A stretch of 64,000 bases of DNA from the NCBI RefSeq assembly GCF_000204055.1, contig NW_006768824.1, positions 2,366 to 66,365 on the forward strand, given 5' to 3'. Below the pieces are notes generated by a model. The model worked only from the letters and a program-made list of their open reading frames with translations. It had not been told where the DNA came from and did not search any database. Source of the DNA: Melampsora larici-populina 98AG31. Taxonomy: Eukaryota; Basidiomycota; Pucciniomycetes; Pucciniales; Melampsoraceae. Position numbers and translations under genes: made by a program. Each line of letters opens with the position of its first letter. The stretch's first letter is position 1. Below are positions 17,101 to 63,956 of the stretch, piece after piece.

Positions 17101-18008
17101 AGGGCTTCGTCGAATGCCTCGATTGCGGCCCGAGTTGTGAGCGGTTGAAGTGCTGGTAAAGTTGTGGCCAGCTCTTGTTTGAAAAGCGCTCGGTCTACCT
17201 TATTCCAGTTTTTTAACTTGATGCCTTGAGACTGGGCGGTGTCTGCGTCTCCTGTCTTCGTGGAGAAGCACATGACAAGAGCTTGATGGTCGGACTGATG
17301 GTTGAGGATGTCCTCTTCATCTATGAAACACTGGTGAGTTACGTCATCGAAGTTTTCATTAACCCATACCTGGTCAATGGACGTGCCATCTGTGTTGTGT
17401 GTCCTGACGCCAAAGGTCGGGATCCCCTTTGGGGAGCGCAGGGTAAGTCCCCATTCCGAAAGCATGTCAATTAGCTTTTCGGCCTCGACGTCGTTTGACT
17501 TGCTGTGTGTCGGGTTCCAGAGTGGTGAGTGAAGATTCGAGTCTGTGGTGCAGATGGTGGGTAAGAGTTGGGTTTTTAGCGGGGCCATTNNNNNNNNNNN
17601 NNNNNNNNNNNNNNNNNNNNNNNNNNNNNNNNNNNNNNNNNNNNNNNNNNNNNNNNNNNNNNNNNNNNNNNNNNNNNNNNNNNNNNNNNNNNNNNNNNNN
17701 NNNNNNNNNNNNNNNNNNNNNNNNNNNNNNNNNNNNNNNNNNNGTCTGATATATAGACAGGCTCGTGGTCTGTCCTTCTCCTCACGTGATGGAGGATTAG
17801 GGCAGACTAGGGACCAATTTTGTAAATTGAGTGGTAAGTTGTCTATAGGATTAATGTAAGGTTCTTGAACGGCGAGAATTGAAAAGAGGCCAGTAAGTTC
17901 TGAATTAAATAGGGAATGGGTAACATATTTGGAATGCCGGCAATTCAGCTGGAGGATTGCAGCAGTGTGGTCAAATTTGAGTATGCTTCTTATCTGGTTC
18001 TCTAACAT
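14109..18008 (-). CDS. LINE ORF2: endonuclease, reverse transcriptase, RNase H
   Basis: This 1299-codon frame makes the enzyme that copies the element's RNA at the target site. Residues ~10-250 are the exonuclease/endonuclease/phosphatase-type endonuclease (TDSNLHSPLW, SIDQVWV, SDHQALV). Reverse transcriptase follows with SAYRPIALL, DVKSAFPSV, LPQGSPLSPLLY and the catalytic FIDD at 707-710 (many relatives have FADD or FVDD). RNase H lies at ~990-1130 with FSDGS, the QAEYTG Glu, LDNQG and GHKGIPGNEEAD, so all acidic residues are present. A C-terminal Cys/His cluster (CECQEGIENVDHFLFIC) ends the protein. Residues 89-140 are unknown because of the N run. Its ATG overlaps the ORF1 stop as ATGTTAG, suggesting translation by re-initiation. 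Confidence 0.92.
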   Translation of the reverse strand: MLENQIRSILKFDHTAAILQLNCRHSKYVTHSLFNSELTGLFSILAVQEPYINPIDNLPLNLQNWSLVCPNPPSREEKDRPRACLYIRXXXXXXXXXXXXXXXXXXXXXXXXXXXXXXXXXXXXXXXXXXXXXXXXXXXXMAPLKTQLLPTICTTDSNLHSPLWNPTHSKSNDVEAEKLIDMLSEWGLTLRSPKGIPTFGVRTHNTDGTSIDQVWVNENFDDVTHQCFIDEEDILNHQSDHQALVMCFSTKTGDADTAQSQGIKLKNWNKVDRALFKQELATTLPALQPLTTRAAIEAFDEALRTAITDALNKHSPNKAKAGKHKAWWRPAILDPLRKEAARLRRLAKKNRDEESFRSYKKARNTFNKAIDKAKESSWRQFLSSVDHTNLFQAKRIASGRKPSSLVSTIITDEGRTCSTNHKKAEALFSATCVATAPCRLDTTNHLEFPLDETPRPSTELTPPFLAMITHETLSTIVNESPPKKAPGADGIQNWVWKMAWGKVKSHVKFLFQCISITGLIPRAWKTAVTIMIPKPGKPDYTQASAYRPIALLLTLSKLFEKLLTIHLSGHAEKLKMIHDGHYGGRPDRSSQEALVHLVSWIKKEWAKGKVVGALFADVKSAFPSVHHPRLLDTLEKKGFNTQTLNLIDNFLTERSTVLSFNGFESQPFVLDHGLPQGSPLSPLLYLLYNSSLLEITDNIPTSTALGFIDDVVLLSTANDTHQLKSQMQTLSFRQQQWARDHGAIFDVKKTFWVLFTLHTPNVIPTINFADRRDIKPADFAKWLGVKVDNKLNFKQHRLDVIAKGHQRAGFLANLSKTGWGIPPKLMRILITTTIHAATDYAAMAWLPTESSMFVTDQLAGIDNTCARAALGALRTTPTVFLRHDLNMTPPKARLQSKVLSFMARSLAKSKSHPFFQLIQQAQHTSPKSHKNPFHQFFQHSLHKHFEEFVIQLPVDPASTLIRPINYSTILQENKEVAKADTLRLKPTPHHLLIFSDGSRIPKKTTAAAAWCANSRSSKSTHLGPARSHGIYQAEYTGVQLGLKIALEMATFATHRTTIVLDNQGVIKDLQSNSSSISSLDNRQQTFKLLQCIHQAFPNMRVTIQWCPGHKGIPGNEEADKIANSLAKRSLPSTFTNTPSTAAFLVAIKEWKVEQTQLLDDKDLKRLGHAPQPKKHLDGLSELLKHEVATLTQLRSGHAPLNAYLNRFKQPIDPVCECQEGIENVDHFLFICQLHEQHRTKLEHELQEHVTKMDKRILSTPKCFKLIATYCNSTWRFANRWIWAQATDESQPTNRLQPQE
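17590..17743. other. Assembly gap (154 N)
   Basis: A run of N inside the endonuclease part of LINE ORF2. The flanking frames are in register across it if the gap length is exact, which may be coincidence or scaffolding estimate. Confidence 1.
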
Positions 18009-19720
18009 TGAGGATTAGATAAGTTTTCCTGATCCATCACCACGATATAAGGTGAAGAGCTTGGATTGTGAGGCGGCCGTTGACTCGCAATTCTCACGGG
18101 GCACAGGGGTGAGAAAGGGTGGTGCAGGAAATCTGCGTGGTTTTCTTTGAAAAGCCTGGCTAGGTTCGTACTAGGATCAGCTTTCAATTTGCCTCTGGCG
18201 CACGCTATGCATTTCAAAGCTGTAGAGCCTTTGATGGGGCAGTTATGTGCATGGTGTGGTCCAGAACAAGAAGGACACATAGTTTCTAGTTTACATGCAG
18301 CGGCAGTATGACCCACACCTTGGCAGTTAAAGCGCCGCGTTGGTGGTGGTCCACACAATTCCGTACGGTGACGGCCTCTCCCATGCCACACTTTAGTGCA
18401 GGCTGCGATGGTCGCTTGATTCAGCGTTTTAAACCCGATCAGCAGGGAGGAATGGCGTTTCGCCGAGTCTTCGGTCGTATCTTTCTTTAACCACCTCACG
18501 AAGAGGGTGTCATTAAGGAGATCGCCATTACATATCTTCAAGAGATCTAAGTCTTCTTGTCTGGTGGGGTTGAAGGTGGTGGGAATGCCATGTATGATGA
18601 CAGAGTGGATGTCCTCTTTGAGTGAGAGATTGGGGGAGATTTTAGGAAGCCAGCATGCAGCCTGTCCTCGAAGCGCCTGGGCTTGTTTTTGGGACTCTAG
18701 GTAGATTACCAAGTCACCTGATGGATGGCGGTGGATATTCCTGACCTCCACGTGGGATACGTCGTCCATGGTGACTTTGATGTTGTTGTTTTTCAGGACT
18801 AGGTTGAACTCCTTGATGAGTTCTGGAATCGGTCGTCCGCCTCCAGCGATATTTGCTGGGTCCCTTTGGTTAAGCGTGAGCGAATGCTCCATCTTAGGGC
18901 GGGGGCGTTGTGTTTGGTTAGCTTTGAAGCTCGTTGGGTTTGGTCTTTGGGGTTGACTTGCTCCCGGCGCGTGTTTCGAGGCGGCCAGAGCGTATGAACT
19001 GCCTGTTGGTTGTTTCTGCTGGCCTGGCTGTTTGTCAGGTGTGACTACAGACACGAGCTTGGCCATTTGTTCGGCTAGCTCTGTGACCTTGTCTGCAAGA
19101 GAGTTGTTTCGGAATTCAAATTGGGAGTTTGACGCGATCGATGACGTGGTGGGGATCAGGACAGCTTGTCGTCCTGGTTCGAAAACCACCCGTCTTGCTT
19201 CAGAGACCAAAGCTTGTTCTTTGATCAACTCGGCGAGCATAAGGATATCAGCTGCCGAGTCGATATCGACTTTGACCGATTTGGCCTGCTTTGACTTTGG
19301 GATCAAAGTGGCCCTTGATACATTGATAAGTTTATCAATGAGCGCTCCAAGAGGTTTGGACAATGCACCAGAGGCACCGAAAAGCTTCGTGATCCGAACT
19401 GATCGAGGAGTTCCGGTGATCTCCTCGATCCCTTCCAGGGGGCTCGGTGAGGGAGCGCGCTGACGAAGGCGTTTTCGCGTGCTCTCCAGCGAAGCTGGAG
19501 TGCTCGCGACCGAGTTAGAAGTGATGAAGGGGGGGATGATGGCCTTATTGGTGGCGTTTGAGGTGGAAGGACGTGTTTTGGGGGTAGACGGAGTCGTTTT
19601 GCCCGTCAGGTCAGACTCTATCAACGCGTCCATCGCGTCCATCGCGTCCTTGTGCGTCGATGCGTCATCCCGAATTGTCAAGGAATCTCGCAAATCGGGG
19701 TCCGGTGGTCCAACGTCCAT
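18002..19720 (-). CDS. LINE ORF1: Gag-like RNA-binding protein with zinc knuckles
   Basis: 572 residues. The N-terminal half is Ser/Thr/Pro-rich, and a coiled-coil-prone stretch (NSLADKVTELAEQMAKLVSV) lies mid-protein. The C-terminal part has zinc-knuckle motifs: RRFNCQGVGHTAAAC followed by CPSCSGPHHAHNC and a third Cys pair. Such proteins bind the element RNA to form the transposition particle. In the first knuckle the expected leading Cys (C-x2-C-x4-H-x4-C) is Arg (codon CGC, one change from TGC). This may be a lineage variant or early decay. The stop TAG overlaps the ORF2 start. Confidence 0.88.
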   Translation of the reverse strand: MDVGPPDPDLRDSLTIRDDASTHKDAMDAMDALIESDLTGKTTPSTPKTRPSTSNATNKAIIPPFITSNSVASTPASLESTRKRLRQRAPSPSPLEGIEEITGTPRSVRITKLFGASGALSKPLGALIDKLINVSRATLIPKSKQAKSVKVDIDSAADILMLAELIKEQALVSEARRVVFEPGRQAVLIPTTSSIASNSQFEFRNNSLADKVTELAEQMAKLVSVVTPDKQPGQQKQPTGSSYALAASKHAPGASQPQRPNPTSFKANQTQRPRPKMEHSLTLNQRDPANIAGGGRPIPELIKEFNLVLKNNNIKVTMDDVSHVEVRNIHRHPSGDLVIYLESQKQAQALRGQAACWLPKISPNLSLKEDIHSVIIHGIPTTFNPTRQEDLDLLKICNGDLLNDTLFVRWLKKDTTEDSAKRHSSLLIGFKTLNQATIAACTKVWHGRGRHRTELCGPPPTRRFNCQGVGHTAAACKLETMCPSCSGPHHAHNCPIKGSTALKCIACARGKLKADPSTNLARLFKENHADFLHHPFSPLCPVRIASQRPPHNPSSSPYIVVMDQENLSNPQC

Positions 19721-29926: not shown

Positions 29927-31533
29927 CTACCTAAATTTCATCATTCCAAGAGGTACCAAAAATGAAACATAATTCCATTCAGCTAGAGGAGGATAAACAT
30001 CATCAAGTAACCTGTTTTGACTAAAATATTGATTTTTAAAAGGAGTTGCAGTAATTAGGGTGAACACATATACCCAAATGATAGGATTTGGAATGTATTT
30101 TAATATCATTGACTCTATAATCATACCAACAGGTTGTAACATGAAATATAATAATGAACCAGGAAATCCTGAGCTGTTAAAGAAATAGTGAGGGTTTGAA
30201 TGAGGTGATCTAGCCACAAAATGAATAGCTAGCAAAAAAAATGCAATCAATATTGGTTTTTTATTGAGTTGTTCTGAGTCCTGAAAGTCTTTATGAGAAA
30301 TGAATTTGACTTACCAAGTTCATGCATAATTCCAGAAACCAAAAAACAACCAAGAAGTCCAGCAATTTTTTGAAGTTGCTTATTAAATCCCAGAAATTTA
30401 AATAATTTTGAAAACTGAATTCCACCTATAAAAATAAAACTTCTTCTAAATAATTGATGCCAATGTAAACTCCATAAATCATTTAAAGAATTAGTTAAAT
30501 GAGGTGAATTATAAAGAGGTAAAAATAATTTTAAATTATAAGAAGTTTTGATCCAATTTGGTAATGATTGATTAAAAGATGAAATCAAATAAGCCAAAAG
30601 TGTATAATAATTATATGATATATCTGTTATTGAAACTATATAAAGTCCAAAGGCGAATGTAGAAATCGAGTCTGTAAGAATTCTAAATACTAAATGATTT
30701 GGTAATCCGATAGAGTCTAGAACTTTGCTGATTGAACCGATATCTCTGATATATACCGAGTACGCTACTACAGCGACATGAACAATGTGAACTTTCACCA
30801 AGCGCTTGAAGACTTCCATGGCGCTACGTGTGTTGGGTTGAACATGGCTACCCCAACCGTATTGGAATCCCCGAGCGCTATATCAGAATGCAAGGAAAGA
30901 TAGTATCATGGTATCAGAGCCCACCCATCCGCATTCGATATATATACGGACCACGGTAGGGAACAAAGTATAGAAATTTGAATGAGACTAGAAGATGATG
31001 ATGAGAAAAATGACGAACGAGAGAAATTGATCAACTGTCCAGATATACCAACTTTCTAAAGTGAGTTGATCAGAAGATTTCTTATCATTTTCAATCGATT
31101 CATCAGCATCATCATTCTTTTTCAATTTTTTAGAATCATCATCATCTAAATCAAATTCATGACGGATTTGATGAATTTTTTTAAGTTGATGATCATCTGC
31201 TAAACCCCATTCTAAACTTTTAAGTGATAAATGAATTCCAAAACAACTAAAGAAAAAATTAAAAATTCCACTCTGATCCAATGGTTTAAAACAATAATCT
31301 ATTGAAATTTTTAAAGATGACCAGAAATTGATAGGAGTAAGAATTAATCTTATTAAACGTAAGTTTTGATTAAATGCAAGTTGAGGATGTAATAATGAAC
31401 ATTGAAAAAAGAGTAAGAGTAAAATGGGTATGATCGAAAGTGATGGAGTTTGACAAGTGATAGGTTGTTGAGGATTTAAGAATGTTTGAAAGACTGAGTC
31501 ATTCATGATAGCTGATTTTAAGCGTTCTATCAT
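29927..31533 (-). CDS. MBOAT-family wax-synthase-like acyltransferase
   Basis: A membrane-bound O-acyltransferase of the wax-synthase type, expected to transfer acyl groups from acyl-CoA to a lipid alcohol in the ER membrane. The substrate cannot be told from sequence. Three exons (31533..30989, 30877..30315, 30273..29927) give 484 aa in frame. There are many hydrophobic segments. The core signature is DLWSLHWHQLFRRSF, then LGCFLVSGIMHELE with the conserved catalytic-type His, and FMLQPVGMIIE. The upstream RGFQYGWGSHVQP matches the family's RGxGW region. An acidic, Asp/Lys-rich loop interrupts the N-terminal part. The second intron is only 41 nt (30314..30274). It converges with the tRNase Z gene. 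Confidence 0.8.
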
Positions 31534-38080: not shown

Positions 38081-40804
38081 TTAATCAAGATCTTGAGTTC
38101 CACTATATTCTTTTAATCTTTCACAAGCTTCTTCCCATTGAATCTTACAAAAACATAAATCTTCTAAAACCTTTAAAACCTCATCAATCGAACCAATCAA
38201 TTGTTTAGTAGAATCTCTTTCTCTATTATAAACCAAAAAAAAACCCAAAATTCATCATCATCAAAAACTAACTCCATTTTTGTTTTGGAAAGAGAAAAGA
38301 TTTCTTTTTTTTGGTTCTCTTTCTCACTTACCTTAGAGTAACGGTTTGATTTTTAACTGAACCGAAATCAACAGTGATCCCAAAAGGTGTACCTAATTCA
38401 TCATTTCTTGCATACCGTTTACCAATCGATGCATTCGAATCATCTACCCGATTAGCCAATCCCACTTTCCTAAGTTTGTCAGCTTAAAAATTCCCCAAAG
38501 CCCCAGACCAAAAAATATCACATCAACTTAAACCAATGTGATTTTGTCTTTCAATCACTCAATTCAATTCATCCTGGCCACTTACAAATGATCTTTATGA
38601 TCGGTCTAAAGACTTCTGTACCACTTAATGGAACAATCAAAACTTTAATAGGTGAAATCGATGGTGGTAAAGAAAGCACCTATTGTTGGGTCAATCAAAT
38701 CAAACCAGACCAAAATCAGTTTTCCAAACCTAGAAACTCATCAATCCCACATCAACTGACTCCTCTATTAATATCTTCTTCTCTAGTCCAAAAGGTATGT
38801 TCTAGAAGTGAGTATAAGATCCTTCCGATCCCAAACGAAGGTTCAATCACATTTGGTGTAAATTCTCTTGCTATTCGAAACCGTTGATGAAAAAGAAAAT
38901 CATTAATTGAATCGGTTTTAAAACCAGAAAGAGACTCTGATTCACTTACTTGTTTCTTTGAATGTCCTTTTTTCAATCTTCAACACATCAGATGTTAATT
39001 CATATTCCTTTCCATTTGATACTTTGACTTTGGATGAACTAAATCCAAAATCCAGAACCAAACCAAACCCGTCAAATTAGTTTCTCAAGAAATCATCTCC
39101 TTTAAAAAATGAATCACCTACCCAGTCGAACTTAATTCATTTCCAATACATTCTAATCTTTCTTGATCCATTTCCATCATACTCTCTTCAATCGGTTTAG
39201 CATCCTTCTTAAACCTAGGTCCAAACAATTTCTTATCAAACACCGGTACGTTCTTTTCAAACTCAATGCCTTCTTTCAAAGGTTCTCTAACGACTAATTT
39301 CGTTCCGGTCCTAATCGAATGTACCGTTAGATCATAAGCCGATCGATCTGCACATCCAACACATTCTATCCATCCATACGAAGAAAGGATTTCAGCATCC
39401 CAACAATCGGTAGCATAATGTGCCATCTCATTATCCATATGTTGTCGAAACCTCAATCGAGAATCATCAATTCCAATCTTAATTAAAAATTCATAAATCC
39501 TAACTAAAAAATAACCAAGTGTTTGATTATCTATAATCTTTTGTTCGACTGCTTTACCCACTTGGATTTCTAAAATTTCAGATTGACCATTTGATTGAAT
39601 TCCTTTAGTTAATAATTTAAGTTTTGTGTTGGCAATCGATGAAAACTTTTCATGATCTTTTGATTTCGGATCTAAGAAATGTTCCACTTCGGCCATTGTA
39701 AATTCACGTACTCTTAATAAACCTTGTTTAGGTGAGATTTCATTTCGAAACGATCGTCCAATCTGAGCTGATGCAAATGGTAATTTTCCATTATTAAAAT
39801 CTAATAATCGATTGAAATTTAAAAAATGTCCTTGAGCTGTTTCAGGTCTTAGATATCCTTTTAATTGACCAGTCGGACCGATTTGAGATTCAAACATTAA
39901 ATTAAATTCAATAGGTGTTGAAAGCTTATTACCCGTCTCTGGTGAAGTGATCTGTTCTGACTCGATCAAGTGACCTAATTCAGGACCCGTAAAATTATCA
40001 AGTTGTGCTAAAAGTGAATGATATTTCTGTACGATCTCATCGGTTAATTTCACCGGTGCTAATGATTTTAACTTTTTCTTCTTGTTTAAGGTTTGTTCGG
40101 TTACATCGAGTTTCGAACCACGTGCTTGTAAATCAGAATCTAATCTAGACTTAATGACAGCTTCTATCAAATGATCAGCTCTAAAGATATCCCCTGTAAC
40201 AGTATCTCTGACCATCCAATCCGAAAACTTATCAACATGTCCTGATGTCTTGAGCACTTCTGCTGGAGTGATACACGTGGTATCTAATTCTAACATATCT
40301 TCTTCTATAATAAAATGACGTCGCCATTCATTTAAGATATTAGATTGTAAAGCTGAACCTGGTGGACCATAATCATAACTAGAATCAATCGATCAAAAGA
40401 TGTCAAGGTAAGTTGAATAGAGTTTTTGTTTGAGAAAAAAGCTTTGGTTTTGAAAAACTTACAAACCTGCTACACCTGTTTAAATGAAAAGACATCAGAT
40501 TGGTTAGCGAATTTGAATCTAGATGAATGAATGTGTAAGATGAAGAAGATTGACCTCCATAGTTTTCAAAAGCAGGAGCATAAAAGAAACGTTTGATGAG
40601 TAAACCTTCGATTTGAGTACGATCGAATGGATGAGCATCTTTTTTAATGATGTGTTGTTTTGATTGAGTTGTCATTTTGGACTTGAAATGGTTTCTTTTG
40701 ATGGTTAGTCTTGGTTGAGAATGAAGAGTGGATGGAATGGATTTGATGATCGAATTGAAATTTCGATTCATTGACTTGTTGACCGATTTGATTAAAAAAA
40801 TCAA
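38081..40804 (-). CDS. GRS1: Glycyl-tRNA synthetase, probable dual-targeted
   Basis: Class II synthetase that charges tRNA-Gly. Exons are 40804..40555, 40475..40463, 40378..39122, 39038..38950, 38870..38761, 38679..38586, 38482..38332 and 38222..38081. From ATG at 40675 ([19 protein letters not shown]) the product is 658 aa. Visible family blocks are [55 protein letters not shown] (motif 2 region), [19 protein letters not shown] (motif 3), [20 protein letters not shown] and [20 protein letters not shown] (anticodon-binding domain). An upstream in-frame ATG at 40804 adds 43 residues rich in Lys, Arg, Asn and Ser with no acidic residue, like a mitochondrial presequence. One gene serving both compartments is known from yeast. 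The second exon is only 13 nt. Confidence 0.95.
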
Positions 40805-45615: not shown

Positions 45616-45616
45616 A

Positions 45617-45649
<33 letters not shown>

Positions 45650-45793: not shown

Positions 45794-47788
45794 CTATCTT
45801 AAGTTTTGATCCCACATCTTAAGCTGTTGAGCAACATTAACTTGTAGGTCTTTCATCTTTTCCTCGTGAACGTAATTTTTGACTATAGGTACATCAAGCT
45901 TGTTCTTCAAAGTAGCCAAGAAACGATCATAGCCCTCTCTGGTGGCTGTCTCCAATGGGTTATCAAGTGCTTCCCTAAGAGTTTTATAATTATGAAGATG
46001 ATCTATTCCAGATTTTCTTTTTTCAATATCATAAAGGATTTCCCAATGATTAGTAAATTTTTGTAAATGTTTTTTGACTTTTCCTGCCAATAAAAAATTC
46101 AACTTGAAAACTTTATTAAAGATTGTGTTCCAATTTTCTCCCCTTTGAATTAATTTCCAAGCAAGCTCAGTGATGGCTAATTGACTTTGATCTAAAGAAA
46201 CACCTGCATAGATGTATTGGATTTAAATCATTCTCAGATTTTCTTTGATGTTGGGAAGTTGAACTTGAATGTAGACCTAACATTCACATACCTATCGGTT
46301 CTGCCGAAGTTTGAGATGTTATTATTGATTCTTTTTTTGTGCGAATAGAAAAAATAAAGAGGAAACTTGTTGAGTATTAAAACATGATAGCGCCTTGGAG
46401 GGATAGCAAACATACCACGAAATGTTGGCCGAGGAACTTGCTCAAGAGTAGTGGATATAGGAGATCAAATTCAGTAACACCGCTCTAAAGGATAAAACTT
46501 GAGAAATGTTTAATGAGCTCACTTTCTACCTGAGATTGTAATTCAACAGGAGGATGGTAATCTGATGAATAAAGATGATCAATTCAATAAAATCATTTGT
46601 TGCACTTCAAGGATGTTTCTAGATTTCTCACCTTTTGATGAAGCTTGTACTCCTTTGAGCGAAAGGTTTTCTGATCAACGAATAAATCAGATTAGATTGA
46701 GGGCTTTCTGATGATAGGTCTTTGAAAAGTTATCCACAATCCAAAGGACCCACCTTTCAGCGCAGCTTGTGCCTTCGTAGGAACATGGTTTTCTGATCAA
46801 TGCACATCCAAGTTAGTTGGCCGCATAAAATTATTGCGCTTCGGTACGGTCTGTAGAGCCCTCACCTTTGAGCGAGGGTTGCGCTTCCTTAGTGAGAGAG
46901 GTCAGATGTTTAACTAGTGGATTGTCTTGAAAATCAATCAAAGCATCGTGATAGATTTCGTCATCCTCATTTGAATTGTGGTGCGGAATCTTTGTCGCCT
47001 GATTAGCCATCGATTCATCAAGATTGCTTGTCATCATATCAGGTATTGATCTATGAGTCGTTTTCGTCGCTTGATCGGCTGTCGATTCATTCCCTTGATC
47101 AGCTATTGATTTATCACTGGGTGAAATACCATTTGAGCTCGAAGACTTTGACACACCAGTATGCGATCTGCTTTGAACAATATTACGAAAGCTTCTTATG
47201 GTCTATTAGACATGGCATATGAGTTTCACCTCAGCGGTCGTCGCATGGTTATTTCATGGATCAAAGAGAATTACTAACAGATTTTTGGAGCGAAGAGAAG
47301 CCTTTCATTATTCTCTTCCACCAAGATTTCAAACTCGTACATAAGTGAATTGACCACCATGAAGTCTTCACTTTATCTAATTCTTTTCCTTTTCCACCAA
47401 TTGGGGTGGTAGTTGACGCGCCAAACCTTTCTAGCTGCTCATCGCCTAGTGGAACCTCACGATTCAATCCTGACACGAAGTCTCCCTCTGAAGGTGTGAT
47501 TTTCTTTCTCCCAAGTTCATCAGATAATGAACCTTTAACTTGCAATGGTGAAGTACTTGGAGATGAGTGAGACTTGAGCGTAGTCCGTAAAGATCCAACA
47601 GAAGCCATTTCCTTGGATTCAGGTATTGATGATTCTAGTGCCAAGTGTGTGACAGCAAGAGCTCGTCTCCCAAATTGGGCGCTGGTATTGTACTTCGCAT
47701 CTTCTGTAGGTATACATAATGAGCTGGCGAAATATAGGTTCCAGAAAATGAGAAAAGTTCTCAGATGCAGATGTCTTCGATGATGCAT
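45794..47788 (-). CDS. Predicted secreted protein with mini-exons, short paralogue (477 aa)
   Basis: Family not recognised. Exons: 47788..47279, 47202..46866, 46792..46754, 46670..46632, 46561..46523, 46436..46416, 46330..46292, 46203..45794. The start at 47788 (MHHRRHLHLRTFLIFWNLYF) gives a basic n-region and hydrophobic core like a signal peptide, and matches the paralogue. Exon 2 ends HLTSLTKEAQPSLK. Mini-exons encode ENHVPTKAQAALK, ENLSLKGVQASSK and DYHPPVELQSQVE, all phase 1. The exon at 46436..46416 is a shrunken remnant of the paralogue's 252-nt exon. A longer acceptor upstream gives a stop in the needed frame, so it uses an inner acceptor or is skipped. The C-terminal exon carries the shared domain (SQLAITELAWKLIQRGENWN, SKTLREALD-like YKTLREALDNP, WDQNLR). 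A secreted candidate effector is plausible. Confidence 0.65.
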
Positions 47789-49402: not shown

Positions 49403-52400
49403 CTATATTTTACTTTTGTCCCAGTCCTGAAGCTGTTTGGCGATGTTTTTCTGAAGCTTTGTCATCTTGTCCGCTGTTGTGATGGTTTTGACGAAAGTTT
49501 CATCCATCTTACCCTGCAAGGTAGCTATGAATATATCGTATCCTTTACGGGTTGCCGCGTCCGAAGGTTTATCAAGAGCTTCCCTGAGAGTTTTAGAATT
49601 TTTAAGATGGTCCACCCCAGATGTTCTTTTCGCAATTTCATATTGAAGCTCCCAGAGGTCCGTGTACTTTTGCAAGTGCTTCGACCCCCTTCCCGCCAAT
49701 CCCAATGTCCAACCAGGATATAGTTTTTCAAACACAGTGTCCCATTGCTCTCCTCTTCGCATCAGTTCCCAAGAAATCTCAGCGATTGCTAATTGACTCT
49801 GTTTTACAAGATAAGCTGTATGGGCATTGACGTTGAGTCATCGTTAGATTTTCTCAAATGATGGTAAGATCAACTTCAATTTGGATACACCTATCACATA
49901 CCTTTTGGTTTTGCCAAACTTTTAGCTGTCAATTCTGTGTCTTTGTGGGCAAAGAGAAGAAAACGTGAAGATATGAGTGCTAACATAACACAGAGCGTTG
50001 GAGAGATAGGAAACATACCACGAAACGTAGGCCTAAACACGTTATCAACAGCAGTCGATATGGGCGGGGTGCGAGTTGATGTTTTGGTGGCAGCTGATGA
50101 TGGGTTGGATGCGCGGACATTCGAAAATGGCTCGGCTGTAGATGGCAATGGCTTGGCGGAGATGGCATGCAATGATGCTTCGGGGGTATCCGAGATTGAT
50201 TTGGAGACGGGGGCAGCCAAAACTGGTGCAAGGCTAGCTGGTGATGCGTCGGGATTTGGGGAATGGGTTCCTGATCAAGCAAGATATCATAATCAGTAAA
50301 ACCATTCCCACCAGAAGAACCAGGAAAACCTTCCAATGACTCACCTTCTAGCGGAACTTGTGGTACAGTGGGAGGATGGTTCTCTGATCAATAAAAAATG
50401 ACATTTAGTTAAATGATTCTTCGCTCATGGAAGCTGTTTGCAGGTCTCTCACCTTTTGGAGATGCTTGTGCTTCTTTGGGCGAGAAGTTTTCTAATCAAG
50501 AAATATAAATCAGCTCGGCTGGAAGGGATTCAGATTCGTGCATTTGGAAATGAAGTTTCAGAGTAGCCACCTTTTAGCGCAGCTTGTGCTTGGGCAGGAT
50601 TCTGGGTTGCTGATGAATGAGCCAATCAAATCCAGTTAGGTCAGTCGAATTGATTGCGCTTAAAAAAGTTCTCGAGCCCTCACCTTCAAGTGAAGCTTGT
50701 TCTTTCGTGGAAAGGACTTCTGATCGATAGAAGGATCAAAATCCGTCAGATGGCTTCAGATTCTTGTGCTTGAAAAGGTCCTCAGATCACTCACCTTTTG
50801 AAGCAGCTTGTTCTTGGACAGGGCGGGTGTCTGATGAATCATCAATAAATGGATTCGATTCAGTATGATCATTGAAAGGGTACGCAACAAAAATTCATTC
50901 TAAGGCCCTCACCTTTCGGAAGGACTTGCGCTTTTTCAGGGGAAAGTTTTTCTAAATAACGAAGAAATGAAATTTGATCGAGAAGGATTCAATTTCCTGC
51001 AATTGAAATTGGAGATTTGAAGTGTCCACCTTTTAGCACAGCTTGTGCTTCGGTAGGTATGTGGTTTTCTGAAAAATAAGCAAATCAAAATTAGTTAAAT
51101 CAGTCGAAATGATCGCGCTTGAAAAAAGGCTCTTGAGCCCTCACCTTCAAGTGAAGTGTGTTCTTTTGTGGAGAGGTTCTCTACGCAATGCATAGATCAA
51201 ATTCCGTCAGAGTTCCAGTTTAGTATGCTTGAAAAAAAATCTTCAGATCACCCACCTTTTGAGGCAGCTTGTTTTTCGGCAGGGAGGGTTTCTGATCAAT
51301 CATCGAGAAATGAAGACAATTCAGTATGATAATTCAAAGTGTATGCAATTCAAAATCGATTATGGAGACCTTACCTTCGGGAACAACTTGTGCGTCTTCA
51401 GGGGAAAATTTTTCTGAACAACGAAGAAATCGAATTGAATGGAAAGTGGTTCAAATTCCTGCATTTAGAAATGGACTTTCAAAGTGCTCACCTTTCAGCG
51501 CAGCTTGTGCTTTGGTAGGGACATGGTTTTCTAATTGATAAGCACATCAAACTTAGTTGAGTCAGTCGAAAGGATCGCGCTTCATCATAAAGGGTTCTCG
51601 AGCCCTTACCGTCAAGTAGAGCTTGCTCTTCTGTGAAAAGGTTTCCTAATCAGTAGATATATCAAATTCCGTCAGAGGGTTTCCGATTGTTGTGGTTCAA
51701 AGGTATATTGAAATCACTGACCTTTTGAGGCAGCTTGTGCTTCGGCAGGTAGGGTTTCTGATGAATCATCAAGAGATGGATAGAATTCAGTATGATCATT
51801 CAAAGTGAACGCAGTCGCCAAATGCTTCTGAAGCCCTCACCTTTCGGAAGAACTTGTGCTTTCTCAGGGGATTTTTTTTCTAGACAGCGAAGAAATCAAA
51901 TTCGATCGAAAAAGATTTAATTTTCTGCAACTGAAATTGTAGTTTTAAAGTGCCCACCTTTTAGCGAAGATTGTGCTTGGGCGGGTGCATGGTCTTCTGA
52001 TCCGCAAGCAAATCAAATTTAGTTAGGTCACTCGAAATCATCGCGCTTGAAAAAAGGGTTCTTGAGCCCTCACCTTCAAGTAAAGATTGTTTTTCTGTGA
52101 CGAGGTTTTCCAATAAGTAGATACATCAAATTCTGTTAGAGGGTCACATATTCTTGTACTTGTGAAATGTATTCAAATCACCCACCTTTTGGGGCAGCTT
52201 GTTCTTCAGCAGGGAGAGTTGCTGATCAGTCATGAAGAAATGAATACAATTCAGTATGAATGTTCAAAGTGTACACAATTAGAAATTCCCTATAGAGCGC
52301 TCACCTTTCGGAAGACCTTGTGCTTTTTCAGGGGAAAGTTTTTCTAAAAAACGAAGAAATAATATTCAATCGAGAATGGTTCAGGTTCCTGCACTTGAAA

Positions 52401-54043
52401 ATGAAAATAAAAATTGATCTGTAAGAGCGCACCTTTTAGGGCAGCTTCTGCTCCGGCGGGTACATGGTTTTCTTATCAATAAGCAAATCAAATTCAGTTG
52501 AATCAGTCGAAATGATCACTCTCGATAAAATTTTTTGAGCCCTAACCTTTGAGATGAGGTTGCGGTTCCGTACTAAGAAAGGTCTCATGTTCATCCGGTA
52601 TATTATCTTGGAATTCACTCAAAGCATCGTGGAATATTTCGTCATCCTCATGTGAATGATCATGCGGAATTTTTGTCTCCTGTTTAGCTATTGATTCATC
52701 GTGGCTTCTTGTCGCTTGGTCAATTGTGGGTTCGTGAGCAGTGGTTGTCCCTTGATCAGCTATGGTGTCGAGAGGAGCTTTTGTTCCTTCTTCAACTGCG
52801 GATTCATGAGGAATTTGTGTCGCCTGATTAGCTATCGATCCATCATGGCTTCTTGTCGCTTGCTCGATTGTGAGTTCGGGAGGAGTGGTTTTCCCTTGAT
52901 CAGCTATGGTGTCGAGAGGAGTTTTTGTCGCTTTTTCAACCGCGGATTCATGAGGAGTTGTTATCGCCTGATTTGCTATCGATTCATCATGATTTTTTGT
53001 CACTTGTTCAACTATGGGTTCATGGGGAGCTGCTGTCCCTTGATCAGCGATGGTGTCAAGAGGAGTTTTTGTCGCTCCTTGAACTGCGGATTCATGAGGA
53101 GGAGTTGTCGCCTGATTTGGTATTGATTCATCATGATTTCTTGTCACTTGTTCAACTGTGGGTTCATGAGGAGTTGTTGTTGTTTGATCAGCTATGGCGT
53201 CGAAAGGAATCTTTGTCGCTTGTTCAACTGTGGATTCATGAGGAGTCTTTTTACCTTCATCAACTGTGGAGTCATGAGGGGTTCTTGTAGCTGGATCATC
53301 GATAGATCCATGAGGAATTTTTGTCACGTCATTCGCTATTGTGCCATCGAGAACTTTCGTTCCTTCATCGATTGTTGATCTATCACTGGGTGAGATCACA
53401 TGTGAGCTGGGAGACTTCGATAAAACAGTATATGGTCTGCTTGGTATAATTTTACCAAAGCCTCTTTTGATCTATCAGACCAGGGGATGCGAGGTTCACG
53501 TTAGCGGCTGAACATGAATATTCCTTAGAACAAATGCAAATTACTAACCGATTTTTGAAACGAGCTGAGATGATTTATCACTGTCTTCCACCAAGATTTG
53601 AGAATTCTGGGTAATTGATTTTTCCACCACGAAGAGTTCAATTTATCTAATTCCTTTCCTTTTCCACCAATTGAGGTGGTTGACGCGGACTTTTCCAGCT
53701 GTTCTTCGCTTCGTAAGCCCCAAGGATTTAATAGTGGGACCGAATCTCCTTCCAAGAGTGTGATCTTGTTTCTCCCGAGTGAACTGGATGATAGAGCACT
53801 GTTCCTCAGTGATGAAGTAGTTGGCAATGACTGAGACTTGAGCATAGTCGGTAACAAAGAGACCGCTTCTTTGGAATCAGATGATGATTCGATTGCCAAG
53901 TGTGTGGCAGAAATTCCTCGTCTGCCGAATTGAGTGCTGGTACTGTGTTTGCCATTGTCTGTTGGTATAACTAATGAGCTGGTAAAATATATGTTCCAGA
54001 AGATGAGAAAGTTTCTCAGATGTAAATGTCTTCGATGATTCAT
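49403..54043 (-). CDS. Predicted secreted protein encoded by a 24-exon mini-exon gene
   Basis: Family not recognised. Exon 1 54043..53549 starts MNHRRHLHLRNFLIFWNIYF (signal-peptide-like). Exon 2 53471..52547 holds 12-residue repeats. Then come nineteen mini-exons of 36 or 39 nt between 52471 and 50345, then exons 50270..50019 (252 nt), 49940..49902 (39 nt) and 49815..49403. From exon 2 on, every junction is phase 1, and every internal exon after it is a multiple of 3. The sum is 2841 nt, 946 aa. The terminal domain (SQLAIAEISWELMRRGEQWD, SKTLREALDKPSDAATRKGY, ending WDKSKI) is shared with the paralogue and looks helical. Mini-exon products are short Ala/Gln/Glu/Lys peptides with Pro. A role as a secreted, splicing-diversified effector is inferred. 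One mini-exon has lost its acceptor. Confidence 0.72.
50345..52471 (-). repeat. Mini-exon array: four ~463-bp modules of four exons
   Basis: Mini-exons in transcript order: 52471..52433 B, 52343..52305 D, 52221..52186 A, 52109..52074 C; 51996..51958 B, 51879..51841 D, 51757..51722 A, 51645..51610 C; 51530..51492 B, 51413..51375 D, 51291..51256 A, 51180..51145 C; 51068..51030 B, 50951..50913 D, 50830..50795 A, 50719..50684 C; 50609..50571 B, 50491..50453 D-like, 50383..50345 B-like. Typical peptides: B ENHVPTKAQAALK, D EKLSPEKAQVLPK, A ETLPAEEQAASK, C ENLSTKEQASLE. Same-type exons recur every 459-475 bp, and introns are repeated with them, so the DNA unit is the whole four-exon module. B and D are 39 nt; A and C are 36 nt. 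Confidence 0.85.
52660..53390 (-). repeat. Exonic higher-order repeat, 144 bp = four 12-residue units
   Basis: Inside exon 2 of the right gene, units like DESIANQATTTP, HESAVEKATKTP, LDTIADQGTTAP and HEPTVEQVTRNH follow each other as 48-residue modules. GATCAGCTATGGTGTCGAGA-type DNA recurs at about 52754, 52898, 53042 and 53189, roughly every 144-147 bp. The left paralogue has only a few such units. Confidence 0.85.
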
Positions 54044-61040: not shown

Positions 61041-63956
61041 TTGAGTGCACCAACTGGACTACCAACCATCACCCTTCCAAAGATGACTAAGCCTTGGTTT
61101 CTTACTCTATTGTTGAAAGTGTTTCCATTGAGCTCTGCTTTCCAGGCTGGGCCCACAAGATCAATCATCACACATGGAGTTGAAGACAGAAGTAAGGCAT
61201 TGACCTTTGAAATACCACCAGGGGACAATATTTTTCATGATGGTGAAGTTTTGAACTTTGATGAAGGGAAAAAAATTCAATACCTTCCTCACCCTAGTCC
61301 AGGTTTTTTGGAAGGAAATGGCATCAAATTTCTTCAAGGGAACCAGTACTGGGATACAAACATCATGGCAAACCTTGGATCAGCTACAATTCCACCAATC
61401 CAGCCCCATTTGGGAGACCAGTTTGATTTGTTTGGTGGAAAAGAACTTCCTATGGGGGACAACCCAGATTTCTTTTCTGAAATTGAACATGATGTTCTTT
61501 TGCATGGTAATGGACAAAGTAGGGGAATTCATCAAGATGAGCTTATTGAGACAGCACAAAATCCATCTCTTCCCAACCTTATTCAGCCTACATTCCAAGA
61601 TCACTGCCAAACCAAATCTCATTCTTCAGAGCAGTTCAATCTGGTTAGTGGAATTGAGATTCCAACATGGAATTGGTATCACCCACAAGTATTTCCTGAA
61701 ACAGAAGATGGAAGCTGTTTGAATGGCAGTGGGAAACTTATAGGAGTCCATCAAGATGATCCAATTGAAATAAGAAAAGATCTGATTATTCTTCACCATG
61801 ATCAGCCTACTCCTCATGATCACTCAATCTCAACCCGAGAGTTTGAAAATTTCATCAGAAATCATGATCACTCAATCTCAACCCCACAGTTTGAAAATTT
61901 CATCAGAAATGATCATCACACATCATTGGGTCAAAAAACCCATCTACCACTACTGGGAGCAACACCTGCATCAGTAGAAAACTTTTATCCAATTATTGAC
62001 TCTAACCCCTTTTTTAAAAAAGAAAGAATCCTTGAAACATCATCACCAGCTATGCACCACAGTCACACACACAGTTTAGACACACTGGATAATGCTTTGG
62101 TTACTGCTCCAGCTAATTGCATCCAACCCACTAAAGACCTGATGGACAACAATACCCAAGGGGATGAATATGACTGGATGAATCTGGAAGATCCCCAGAC
62201 AGATCAATCGATATCACACCATATACATAACTGTGGTTTGCCTAAAGAGAATCAATCCCCCCTCCAAGCACAATATAATACTGATAAGAATGACAATATT
62301 TTGAATGGGGCCTCTGGCTTGGGTGACCATGCATATATAGGTAAAAACCATCAATATGAACCTGTTGGCTTCCATGAAAGGCAATTGTCTTCTAGAAAGA
62401 GAAAGTTGTTGGATATGCAGATTAATCCCCATGATATACACAGTGGAGTTCAGGTGAATTCAGCCGTCAACACTCAAATCAAAACTTCAGCACTAAATCC
62501 AAGGAATATATACCAATTCAAGATCTCAGACCCATTGCCAGAATTCAAAAGCCCTTTGAAAAAAGACAGAAAGGGAGTTTTAACAAGATTACCCATCAAT
62601 CACAGTAAATTAGGTACCAAAAGATATTTCAAATCAAATATCTCATTCAAGAAGCTGGGAATGAATGCAATCCACCTTTTCCAGAAGATGGGTAGTTTCA
62701 AAGTAGATAATGATCCAATTCTGTGTTATGAAATCCCTTTTTGGTTTCAAAATCTGAGTGAAAATCTGAAGAAAAACCTTCCTGGAGATCATATTTTGAA
62801 TGTGAAAATTGCTCAGGCATTGAGAAGTGGTCAATCAAATGTTACAATGAGTTTCTTGGGGCTGCTGATGAGTTATGTTCGCCATGGTGTAGACATTGCT
62901 GTCCAGAGAGATATACTGAGATATGGATGGGAGTTCATAAAGTGGTTGTTTTCCAAGTGGGAAAAAATACATCTAAAAGAAATCAGCTTTCAAGGAAAGA
63001 TCAAGGATGACAAAGCATTTGATTGTCTCAAACCTCAGTTGTTATTTGAATACTTGGCATCCAGCTCTTCACTTGGAAGTATCAAGCTCCAATTGTTTAC
63101 CTCTTTGGTCAAAGAATGGAACAGTAATCGCCCTACATTGAAGCTTCCAAGTACAGATATAGGCTACATGAATCAATGGGCTCTGGGTGTTTATGATCCA
63201 GATCTTATCATGCAGGGTGGATTTTATTCAAGAGCTGGGATAGGAAACCTTGCCTGGGAGGAATTGCAATTTCCACCTCAAGAACAAATATACAAGGAAA
63301 CATTCCAAGAAATATCTTGGCATTCAAAGTTTCTCTCACCTGCAGGATTTCAGCTGTGTCAAGATGTCCATATATTCTTTAGCCCCTTGCTTCGAAGACT
63401 ATTAGAAATTTATGATACAGTTTACCACATTCAGCTTGATACATGTGGAAGTATAAGGGAAGAAGTTCTCAAGTCTAGAAAGCAACCTGACCTGCATCAA
63501 TCAAACATGTTAAAGATTGCCAAGGCTGTGAGTATGGCAGAGTATAGAGTGACTGTGGGAGTTATAGGGATAGTCAGATTACTGTACAAAGATGTTGAAT
63601 CAGAAGATGAGCTCAAGACCATCACTTCTAGTGCATGGAGTTTTTTGCAGCAAGAATTCAGTAAGTGGAGACAGCTGGACTTTGGCAGCCAGAACCTTGG
63701 GAAGTTATTTGCAGACCCAACACCATCATTGAAATGTGGAAAGTATTGGTCAGATATGGAATTAACTTTCAAGCAACTCTGGTCATGGCCAAAGTATTCT
63801 AACGACCCTATTCCTCTCCAATATGTAAGATACCTTCTACAATCCTGGACTGCTATGTTGAAATATAAGTCAGCCATAAGTCCCAGTGGAGTAACTTTCT
63901 CATTGAAAGAAATAACTGATAGAGGATTTTCAGAGTTGATCAAGGTGATTACATAA
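61041..63956 (+). CDS. Large predicted secreted protein, single exon (~957-971 aa)
   Basis: Family not recognised. An uninterrupted frame ends with TAA. Starting at the second Met (61083), the N terminus MTKPWFLTLLLKVFPLSSAF is a good signal peptide with likely cleavage near AFQAGP; the Met at 61041 would add 14 residues in front. The first half (to ~residue 520) is His/Asn/Pro-rich and looks unstructured, with a local duplication HDHSISTREFENFIRN / HDHSISTPQFENFIRN. The second half contains two related helical units: IAQALRSGQSNVTMSFLG with GWEFIKWLFSKWEKI, and IAKAVSMAEYRVTVGVIG with AWSFLQQEFSKWRQL. Intronless structure contrasts with its intron-rich neighbours. A lineage-specific secreted protein, possibly an effector, is inferred. 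Confidence 0.65.
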   Translation: MSAPTGLPTITLPKMTKPWFLTLLLKVFPLSSAFQAGPTRSIITHGVEDRSKALTFEIPPGDNIFHDGEVLNFDEGKKIQYLPHPSPGFLEGNGIKFLQGNQYWDTNIMANLGSATIPPIQPHLGDQFDLFGGKELPMGDNPDFFSEIEHDVLLHGNGQSRGIHQDELIETAQNPSLPNLIQPTFQDHCQTKSHSSEQFNLVSGIEIPTWNWYHPQVFPETEDGSCLNGSGKLIGVHQDDPIEIRKDLIILHHDQPTPHDHSISTREFENFIRNHDHSISTPQFENFIRNDHHTSLGQKTHLPLLGATPASVENFYPIIDSNPFFKKERILETSSPAMHHSHTHSLDTLDNALVTAPANCIQPTKDLMDNNTQGDEYDWMNLEDPQTDQSISHHIHNCGLPKENQSPLQAQYNTDKNDNILNGASGLGDHAYIGKNHQYEPVGFHERQLSSRKRKLLDMQINPHDIHSGVQVNSAVNTQIKTSALNPRNIYQFKISDPLPEFKSPLKKDRKGVLTRLPINHSKLGTKRYFKSNISFKKLGMNAIHLFQKMGSFKVDNDPILCYEIPFWFQNLSENLKKNLPGDHILNVKIAQALRSGQSNVTMSFLGLLMSYVRHGVDIAVQRDILRYGWEFIKWLFSKWEKIHLKEISFQGKIKDDKAFDCLKPQLLFEYLASSSSLGSIKLQLFTSLVKEWNSNRPTLKLPSTDIGYMNQWALGVYDPDLIMQGGFYSRAGIGNLAWEELQFPPQEQIYKETFQEISWHSKFLSPAGFQLCQDVHIFFSPLLRRLLEIYDTVYHIQLDTCGSIREEVLKSRKQPDLHQSNMLKIAKAVSMAEYRVTVGVIGIVRLLYKDVESEDELKTITSSAWSFLQQEFSKWRQLDFGSQNLGKLFADPTPSLKCGKYWSDMELTFKQLWSWPKYSNDPIPLQYVRYLLQSWTAMLKYKSAISPSGVTFSLKEITDRGFSELIKVIT

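What the first reader, a model, noticed from the sequence alone, without database searches (positions are those of the whole stretch)
49403..54043. Fungal micro-exon gene: 19 tandem mini-exons of 36/39 nt in a predicted secreted protein
Seen directly: between a signal-peptide exon plus repeat exon and a conserved C-terminal exon lie nineteen mini-exons with good junctions, all phase 1 and all multiples of 3, closing into one 946-codon frame. Any subset can be skipped without frame loss, so one locus could yield very many secreted variants. The closest known analogy is the micro-exon genes of schistosomes, which also encode secreted variable proteins. I know of no described fungal counterpart, but could not search.
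Basis: partly seen in the sequence, partly recalled or inferred. Interest (0 to 1): 0.93.

Follow-up and report, generated by a model that had tools for sequence, protein, structure and literature searches.

The report
Rust gene with 19 mini-exons
A poplar-rust gene predicted to make a secreted protein contains 19 tiny repeated predicted exons that all keep the same reading frame, so the middle of the protein can likely grow or shrink by whole units during evolution; whether the fungus also mixes these exons to make many versions of the protein is untested.

Summary
On the minus strand at 49403-54043 a 24-exon model closes into one 946-codon frame with 19 tandem mini-exons of 36/39 nt, all phase 1. 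One correction: 18 of 19 mini-exon acceptors are AG; that of 52074-52109 is GG. The deposited Melampsora larici-populina protein MELLADRAFT_93689 is the same sequence apart from four in-frame deletions at internal AGs. The array is (A-B-C-D)x4 + A-B'-L, a ~464-bp unit in tandem. Other relatives: two M. americana proteins (3 and 10 blocks, by eye) and an unnamed contig protein with 11 blocks joined as (A-B-C-D)x2 + A-B'-L, probably spliced RNA. Splice sites and frame are kept beyond the intron rate, and a detached four-exon copy has decayed, but the mini-exon residues change almost freely. Evolution by unit duplication is well supported; programmed splice diversity is possible and unshown. It resembles schistosome micro-exon genes but does not meet their definition.

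The parts
53549..54043 (-). Gene A exon 1: 165 codons, N-terminal hydrophobic segment (predicted signal peptide)
   Evidence: 58% identical to paralog exon 1
52547..53471 (-). Gene A exon 2: 12-aa coding repeats (36-nt period; 144-nt higher-order unit x4.1)
52433..52471 (-). mini-exon 1, class A, 39 nt, ENHVPAGAEAALK
52305..52343 (-). mini-exon 2, class B, 39 nt, EKLSPEKAQGLPK
52186..52221 (-). mini-exon 3, class C, 36 nt, ATLPAEEQAAPK
52074..52109 (-). mini-exon 4, class D, 36 nt; acceptor is GG, deposited protein fits entry at an internal in-frame AG (21 nt, EKQSLLE)
51958..51996 (-). mini-exon 5, class A, 39 nt
51841..51879 (-). mini-exon 6, class B, 39 nt (deposited protein fits use of the last 12 nt, VLPK)
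51722..51757 (-). mini-exon 7, class C, 36 nt
51610..51645 (-). mini-exon 8, class D, 36 nt
51492..51530 (-). mini-exon 9, class A, 39 nt; same 13 aa as the paralog's first mini-exon
51375..51413 (-). mini-exon 10, class B, 39 nt (deposited protein fits use of the last 12 nt, VVPE)
51256..51291 (-). mini-exon 11, class C, 36 nt
51145..51180 (-). mini-exon 12, class D, 36 nt
51030..51068 (-). mini-exon 13, class A, 39 nt
50913..50951 (-). mini-exon 14, class B, 39 nt
50795..50830 (-). mini-exon 15, class C, 36 nt
50684..50719 (-). mini-exon 16, class D, 36 nt; CAG-AAG double acceptor, deposited protein fits the second
50571..50609 (-). mini-exon 17, terminal class A, 39 nt
50453..50491 (-). mini-exon 18, class B', 39 nt
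   Evidence: 31 of 39 identical to paralog mini-exon 2
50345..50383 (-). mini-exon 19, class L (last), 39 nt
   Evidence: 26 of 39 identical to paralog mini-exon 3
50527..52549 (-). tandem array of a ~464-bp unit holding four mini-exons and their introns, 4.3-4.4 copies
50019..50270 (-). Gene A exon 22, 252 nt, phase 1 in and out
49902..49940 (-). Gene A exon 23, 39 nt, phase 1 in and out (26 of 39 bases identical in the paralog)
49403..49815 (-). Gene A exon 24: C-terminal domain (low-confidence all-helical model), stop
47279..47788 (-). Gene B (paralog) exon 1
46866..47202 (-). Gene B exon 2, short repeat region
46754..46792 (-). Gene B mini-exon 1 (class A), 39 nt
46632..46670 (-). Gene B mini-exon 2 (class B'), 39 nt
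46523..46561 (-). Gene B mini-exon 3 (class L), 39 nt; ends in A, unlike the 19 of gene A
46416..46436 (-). Gene B 21-nt exon (IPRPTFR; absent from deposited P0001, similar residues present in P0002)
46292..46330 (-). Gene B 39-nt exon matching gene A exon 23 (absent from deposited P0001)
45794..46203 (-). Gene B C-terminal exon, 54% identical to gene A at the protein level

Best explanation
This is a Melampsora gene predicted to encode a secreted protein, in which the repeat region between the N-terminal and C-terminal parts is cut into 19 same-phase predicted mini-exons that most likely arose by repeated tandem duplication of a four-exon, ~464-bp unit. Shown by the sequence: the unit period, the shared phase, lengths divisible by three, each of the 19 ending in G, and a sister gene with the same layout but three mini-exons. 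Because each exon-plus-intron is a frame-neutral cassette, any gain or loss of units, and any splicing choice that skips an exon or takes an in-frame internal AG, would leave the N- and C-terminal parts in frame. Inferred: the mini-exons are spliced and translated; the array changes length by unequal exchange; the protein works as a length-adjustable, Cys-free, Ala/Glu/Lys/Pro-rich spacer joining an N-terminal region to a predicted helical C-terminal domain at the host interface. Splice isoforms would be expected from slack choice of acceptor, but a programmed isoform repertoire is not the leading reading.
For: Gene model, frame and phase. Unit period 464 bp, 4.3 copies. Deposited protein P0004 (MELLADRAFT_93689) has no substitution against my model and differs only by four in-frame deletions at internal AGs. 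Paralog B with matching exons, three mini-exons and GT and AG at 7 of 7 introns. Two gene copies found in the 98.3-Mb assembly (the tool scores only its best candidates). P0005, an uninterrupted 732-aa protein from contigs of at most 3,242 nt, joins 11 mini-exon blocks in the order (ABCD)x2+A-B'-L; with average introns the gene would need about 3,380 nt. M. americana P0002 has 3 blocks and P0003 has 10 (read by eye). Constraint: 1 of 64 splice bases changed vs 9.4 expected; no stops or indels in the 16 unit exons; exons 64 of 600 and intron interiors 160 of 1084 sites off consensus; dN/dS 0.63 within classes. A detached four-exon copy on contig C24, about 11% diverged, has an in-frame stop, a 2-nt deletion in an exon, a lost acceptor and a GC donor.
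Against: No RNA was available: splicing rests on comparison, on an annotation of unknown support and on one protein whose source code ('lgn') the tool does not explain. Introns between units are nearly as alike as exons (exon identity 0.75-0.84, intron 0.71-0.80), and class D exons are less alike than their introns, so selection on the peptide is weak. In the A/B comparison the mini-exons with exon 23 and the tail of exon 22 show dN/dS 0.94 over 59 codons, i.e. no sign of purifying selection on the residues there. P0005 could fit in 3,242 nt if all 15 introns were as short as 69 nt (3,234 nt). The third protein search, with the array itself, found nothing. Secretion and function are predictions; the C-terminal model is poor (mean pLDDT 55) and has no fold match at E<=0.001. 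The confidence given is for spliced, frame-neutral cassettes that change by unit duplication; the spacer role alone is nearer 0.5, and rivals 1 and 3 share the anatomy, so the confidences overlap.
Confidence: 0.8

Rival explanations
1. A micro-exon-gene-like diversity generator: regulated or stochastic skipping of mini-exons yields many protein variants from one locus during infection.
For: All 19 mini-exons are frame-neutral and end in G, so every subset joins without a junction stop. Internal AGs in the mini-exons keep frame in 39 of 44 cases against 57% in a synonymous null. The deposited protein fits four such internal AGs; P0005 has two class-D blocks of 8 and 7 aa, the latter the size given by the internal AG of mini-exon 4.
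Against: No isoform set was seen. The AG bias is partly a codon preference inherited by all copies, which are not independent. Constitutive splicing would give the same anatomy.
Confidence: 0.25
2. Annotation artefact: a degenerate intronic minisatellite that gene finders cut into tiny exons; the real mRNA skips the region.
For: Period-464 tandem repeat; exon and intron identity between units is similar; one acceptor is GG; the deposited models of this family disagree with each other in small exons.
Against: Mini-exons of the same classes stand in the paralog with intact splice sites, and as joined blocks in P0002, P0003 and P0005, of which P0002 and P0003 are deposited gene predictions; splice sites and frame are conserved beyond the intron rate; the detached copy has decayed.
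Confidence: 0.05
3. A drifting repeat protein: the array is spliced and translated but is a neutral by-product of unequal crossing-over, with no role for its length.
For: Mini-exons A vs B dN/dS 0.94 (59 codons, with exon 23 and the tail of exon 22), while the C-terminal domain is constrained (dN/dS 0.24); block number differs between relatives (3, 3, 10, 11, 19).
Against: Splice sites and frame are kept and the class order is the same in M. larici-populina and P0005 (by eye); both could reflect only the need to keep the C-terminal part in frame.
Confidence: 0.35

Closest known systems
Schistosome micro-exon genes (MEGs)
   Same: Predicted secreted products; runs of small exons divisible by three and symmetric; potential for frame-neutral skipping (PMC4350168 and PMC10526429, passages read).
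   Different: Here mini-exons are about a quarter of the coding length, introns are 69-89 nt rather than 100 to almost 5000 bp, the gene has a large C-terminal exon, no isoforms are shown and no sequence relation was found.
Aphid bicycle genes
   Same: Candidate plant-gall effectors made of many small internal exons that almost all start at codon position 2, the same phase as here (PMC9168663, passages read).
   Different: No Cys or Tyr in the 239-aa array; arrays here are similar tandem units; named relatives found only in Melampsora.
SP7-like effectors of arbuscular mycorrhizal fungi
   Same: Fungal; signal peptide; 6-11 imperfect hydrophilic repeats; SP7 is reported with five versions of its mRNA by differential splicing (PMC11333574 section 6 and passages; PMC4617103 table note, passages).
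   Different: The text I read reports one conserved intron before the first repeat; I saw nothing there on one exon per repeat. The family is Glomeromycotina-specific and no relative appeared in my searches.
Repeat-containing secreted proteins of Melampsora larici-populina (Saunders et al. 2012)
   Same: Same species; 493 of 1549 predicted secreted proteins contain repeats (as cited in PMC4617103, passage).
   Different: Its main text has 0 occurrences of exon, intron and splic (PMC3253089; passages only); whether protein 93689 is listed was not checked (supplements not readable).

Membership tests
Schistosome micro-exon genes | Most of the coding region consists of very small symmetrical exons | tested here: not met
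   Mini-exons sum to 717 of 2841 nt, 756 with exon 23
Schistosome micro-exon genes | Small exons are symmetric and divisible by three | tested here: met
   19 of 19 mini-exons, phase 1-1
Schistosome micro-exon genes | Long introns (100 to almost 5000 bp) | tested here: not met
   23 introns of 69-89 nt
Schistosome micro-exon genes | Signal peptide, secreted product | tested here: inconclusive
   Hydrophobic N-terminal segment and cut-off UniRef label 'Secreted pr'; no signal-peptide program available
Schistosome micro-exon genes | Alternatively spliced isoforms | not testable with these tools
   No transcript data
Schistosome micro-exon genes | Sequence relation to trematode MEGs | tested here: inconclusive
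   Only Melampsora among named hits, but only the ~8,000 candidates sharing most words were scored in each search; no MEG was aligned
Bicycle genes | Internal exons small and almost all starting at codon position 2 | tested here: met
   21 of 22 internal exons start at codon position 2, 20 of them 36 or 39 nt
Bicycle genes | Paired C-Y-C motifs (recalled) | tested here: not met
   Mini-exon peptide composition holds no C or Y
SP7-like effectors | Hydrophilic imperfect repeats after a signal peptide | tested here: inconclusive
   Repeats in exon 2 and array; signal peptide only predicted
SP7-like effectors | Glomeromycotina membership | tested here: not met
   The gene is from Melampsora; the family's sequence signature was not aligned

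The most novel reading that the evidence does not exclude
A fungus has independently evolved a micro-exon-gene system: a secreted host-interface protein whose frame-neutral 36/39-nt exon cassettes are both duplicated in the genome and variably spliced, with frame-breaking AGs purged from the cassettes, so that one locus issues a large family of length and sequence variants.
Probability: 0.25. Interest if true: 0.85.

Novelty: new variant of a known kind. Interest (0 to 1): 0.62.

Why it matters
As far as I recall, repeat-containing secreted proteins of plant pathogens mostly grow by repeats inside one exon. Here each repeat block has its own exon and a ~78-nt intron, so the duplication unit is a splicing unit. 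That makes a question testable in one locus: do such arrays diversify proteins by changing the genome, by changing the splicing, or by both? A sister gene with three mini-exons, a decayed detached copy, and relatives with 3, 10 and 11 blocks give a ready series for dating and comparing arrays. It also parallels small-exon genes of schistosomes and aphids, two other lineages that live on hosts.

Tried and rejected
Common origin of the exon-2 12-aa repeats and the 12-aa mini-exons (classes C and D, 8 exons): profile comparison in all 12 registers gave no signal (P 0.56). C-terminal fold: a five-sequence alignment gave mean pLDDT 55; Foldseek on the PDB gave 0 matches at E<=0.001 of 44 listed; sequence search of solved structures, best E 0.17. 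Pfam on genes A and B: nothing reached a curated cut-off; on five C-terminal domains the best was E 0.016 in one of five members, cut-offs not shown there. Plasmid tblastn with the gene B C-terminal exon: no match, an ill-chosen control. A weak third C-terminal match in the genome at C58 (E 0.175, one stop inside) was not pursued. The AG-phase result looked striking (Fisher P 5e-6 and 0.002) but the exon copies are related, so I use it only as a hint.

Papers: searches (micro-exon, rust fungi, secreted; species and protein number; species, alternative splicing, exon, secreted protein) gave 0, 0 and 11 papers; 30 (microexon, fungi, effector, secreted, tandem; 25 of 2,683 listed) and 48 (7 listed) showed no fungal mini-exon array in the listings. 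Two fungal genome papers that hold the word microexon once each (PMC4014442, PMC5913888) and a powdery-mildew effector made by alternative splicing (PMC9605236) were seen in the listing only. 'Not described' rests on titles and abstract starts of these searches. DeMarco 2010 is not held.
Full report
WHAT IS THERE. The gene is on the minus strand and fills 49403-54043 exactly. I looked for mini-exons by their AC...CT flanks on the plus strand (mini-exon 4, lacking its CT, was read from the sequence), then built and translated the model. It has 24 exons, 2841 coding bases including stop, 946 aa and no internal stop. The 19 mini-exons are 11 of 39 nt and 8 of 36 nt, all entered and left in phase 1, and all end in G. 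Exon 22 (252 nt) and exon 23 (39 nt) have the same phase, so 21 consecutive internal exons are frame-neutral. Introns are 69-89 nt (23 introns, mean 78). Donors are GT in 23 of 23; acceptors are AG in 22 of 23.

WHAT IT COMES FROM. A protein search with the paralog and with gene A returned MELLADRAFT_111955 (P0001) and MELLADRAFT_93689 (P0004) of Melampsora larici-populina 98AG31. P0004 has 922 aa and no substitution against my 946; the difference is four in-frame deletions (5, 9, 9 and 1 residues). Each falls on an AG inside a mini-exon (exons 6, 8, 12 and 18 of the gene), so the deposited protein fits late entry into these exons: 21, 12, 12 and 33 nt used. I saw the deposited protein, not its exon table, and do not know whether transcripts support it. 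Residues of all 19 mini-exons were therefore already in the public annotation; I found no paper that discusses them (listings).

THE SISTER GENE. The C-terminal exon finds one other place in the 98.3-Mb assembly at E<=0.01, 3.6 kb away, and exon 1 of gene B finds only itself and gene A at E<=0.1; the tool scores only its best candidates. Gene B (45794-47788, minus) has the same order of parts: exon 1, a short exon-2 repeat region, mini-exons of 39, 39 and 39 nt, a 21-nt exon, a 39-nt exon and the C-terminal exon, 477 aa, with GT and AG at 7 of 7 introns. Its three mini-exons match the class-A exon (first or last) and the last two exons of gene A's array (29, 31 and 26 of 39 bases identical; shuffled copies 43-50%). 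Introns at matching places are 60-73% identical, exons 65-79%, so the paralog comparison alone does not set exons far apart from introns. The deposited P0001 lacks the 21-nt and 39-nt exons; the M. americana relative P0002 has similar residues there.

THE ARRAY. Tandem Repeats Finder gives a 464-bp period with 4.3 copies. Each unit holds four mini-exons, A (39), B (39), C (36) and D (36), so the array reads (A-B-C-D)x4 then A-B'-L. Gene B has only A-B'-L. The simplest history (inference) is that A-B'-L is the older core and the four-exon unit was duplicated in gene A.

RELATIVES. Five proteins were returned over two searches, all from Melampsora where named: P0001 and P0004 (M. larici-populina), P0002 and P0003 (M. 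americana) and P0005 (no name, source code 'lgn', 7 contigs, longest 3,242 nt). In each search only the roughly 8,000 candidates sharing most words were scored; the search with gene B did not list P0005, so more distant relatives could be missed. Reading the sequences by eye: P0002 has 3 mini-exon blocks; P0003 has 10, in the order A-B-A-B-C-A-B-C-A-L, plus a 25-residue insert that looks like a translated intron; P0005 has 11, in the order (A-B-C-D)x2+A-B'-L, with both D blocks short (8 and 7 residues). That the 11 blocks are contiguous in P0005 was checked. P0005 is uninterrupted; on contigs of at most 3,242 nt, a gene with 15 average introns would need about 3,380 nt, though 3,234 nt if all introns were 69 nt. 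I take it as probable spliced RNA of a related rust ('lgn' read as assemblies of public reads is my recollection, not stated by the tool). Whether that locus holds further mini-exons is unknown. A third search with the array alone returned nothing at E<=0.001, not even P0001, so that search was not sensitive.

IS IT CONSTRAINED? Between the four units exons are 0.75-0.84 identical and introns 0.71-0.80; class D exons are less alike than their introns. Exons have no indels in any of 24 within-class pairs; the introns hold 8 distinct gap events. Using intron interiors as a clock (160 of 1084 sites off consensus; exons 64 of 600), 9.4 of 64 splice-site bases should have changed and 1 did (P 0.0004); in a neutral simulation of the 16 unit exons, 0.0005 of 20,000 runs have neither stop nor indel. 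Copies were treated as independent, so these are approximate. dN/dS within classes is 0.63 (24 pairs, junction codon dropped). Between genes A and B it is 0.47 for exon 1, 0.24 for the C-terminal exon and 0.94 for mini-exons 17-19 with exon 23 and the tail of exon 22 (59 codons). So splicing and frame are kept, the C-terminal domain is kept, and the mini-exon residues themselves change nearly freely.

A NATURAL CONTROL. A DNA search with one unit found a detached copy on contig C24. It is 0.89 identical to 51722-52140 over 412 bases and carries the D-A-B-C exons. D has an in-frame stop and TG for AG (its closest copy, mini-exon 4, also lacks AG, so that loss may be older); A has a 2-nt deletion and a GC donor; B has lost its acceptor; C ends at the break. 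In the 13.5 kb fetched no exon 1 or C-terminal exon matched at the thresholds used. So three of four exons are broken at about 11% divergence, while units inside the gene differ by 20-23% over the same span (3 comparisons) and are intact but for one acceptor.

INTERNAL AGs. In the 19 mini-exons, 39 of 44 internal AGs keep frame if used as acceptors; with codons redrawn from the rest of the two genes the fraction is 0.57. Lys, Glu and Gln codons end in G in 3 of 70 cases against 58 of 203 elsewhere. The copies share ancestry, so this is a hint only.

HOW IT PROBABLY WORKS. Shown: frame-neutral cassettes in a tandem unit, a short sister gene, relatives with other counts. Likely: spliced and translated. 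Inferred: the array is a length-adjustable spacer, Ala/Glu/Lys/Pro/Leu/Gln-rich with no Cys (239 aa), between an N-terminal region and a helical C-terminal domain (low-confidence model). Secretion is predicted from a hydrophobic N-terminus and a cut-off UniRef label. Splice diversity is possible in 2^19 skip combinations by arithmetic, and unobserved.

COMPARISON. Schistosome MEGs share symmetric small exons and secretion, but their small exons make up most of the coding region and their introns are long (passages of PMC4350168, and PMC10526429). Aphid bicycle genes share small internal exons starting at codon position 2 (passages of PMC9168663). SP7-like effectors share repeats and, for SP7, five splice versions (PMC4617103 passages; PMC11333574 passages and section 6). 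Further passages read: PMC10252856 and PMC3253089. I file the gene under none of these: it is a two-gene family known here only from Melampsora, built in a similar way.

Noticed in passing
45794-47788 (-): Full paralog of the gene with three mini-exons; not mentioned in the finding.
   Followed up: yes
L019 4839-5257 (G000 C24:543338-543756): Detached, decayed copy of four mini-exons and their introns on another contig, about 11% diverged; how it moved is unknown.
   Followed up: partly
52660-53325: Exon 2 also has a four-part higher-order repeat: 36-nt units in a 144-nt unit x4.1, parallel to four mini-exons per 464-bp unit x4.3, with no sequence relation found.
   Followed up: partly
14109-19720 (-): Non-LTR retrotransposon-like pair: 1299-aa ORF with endonuclease, reverse transcriptase and RNase H domains and an adjoining 572-aa ORF without Pfam match.
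   Followed up: no
61041-63956 (+): 971-aa open frame (TTG start) with no Pfam match.
   Followed up: no
39118-40296 (-) and 30247-30819 (-): Open frames with a class II tRNA synthetase core match (PF00587) and a membrane-bound O-acyltransferase match (PF13813): ordinary genes nearby.
   Followed up: no
P0003 (M. americana DFH28DRAFT_925519): Deposited protein holds a 25-residue stretch between the first two mini-exon blocks that reads like a translated intron, and an N-terminus unlike its relatives; probably a gene-model error.
   Followed up: partly
45616-45638: ATG/CAT trinucleotide microsatellite just downstream of gene B.
   Followed up: no
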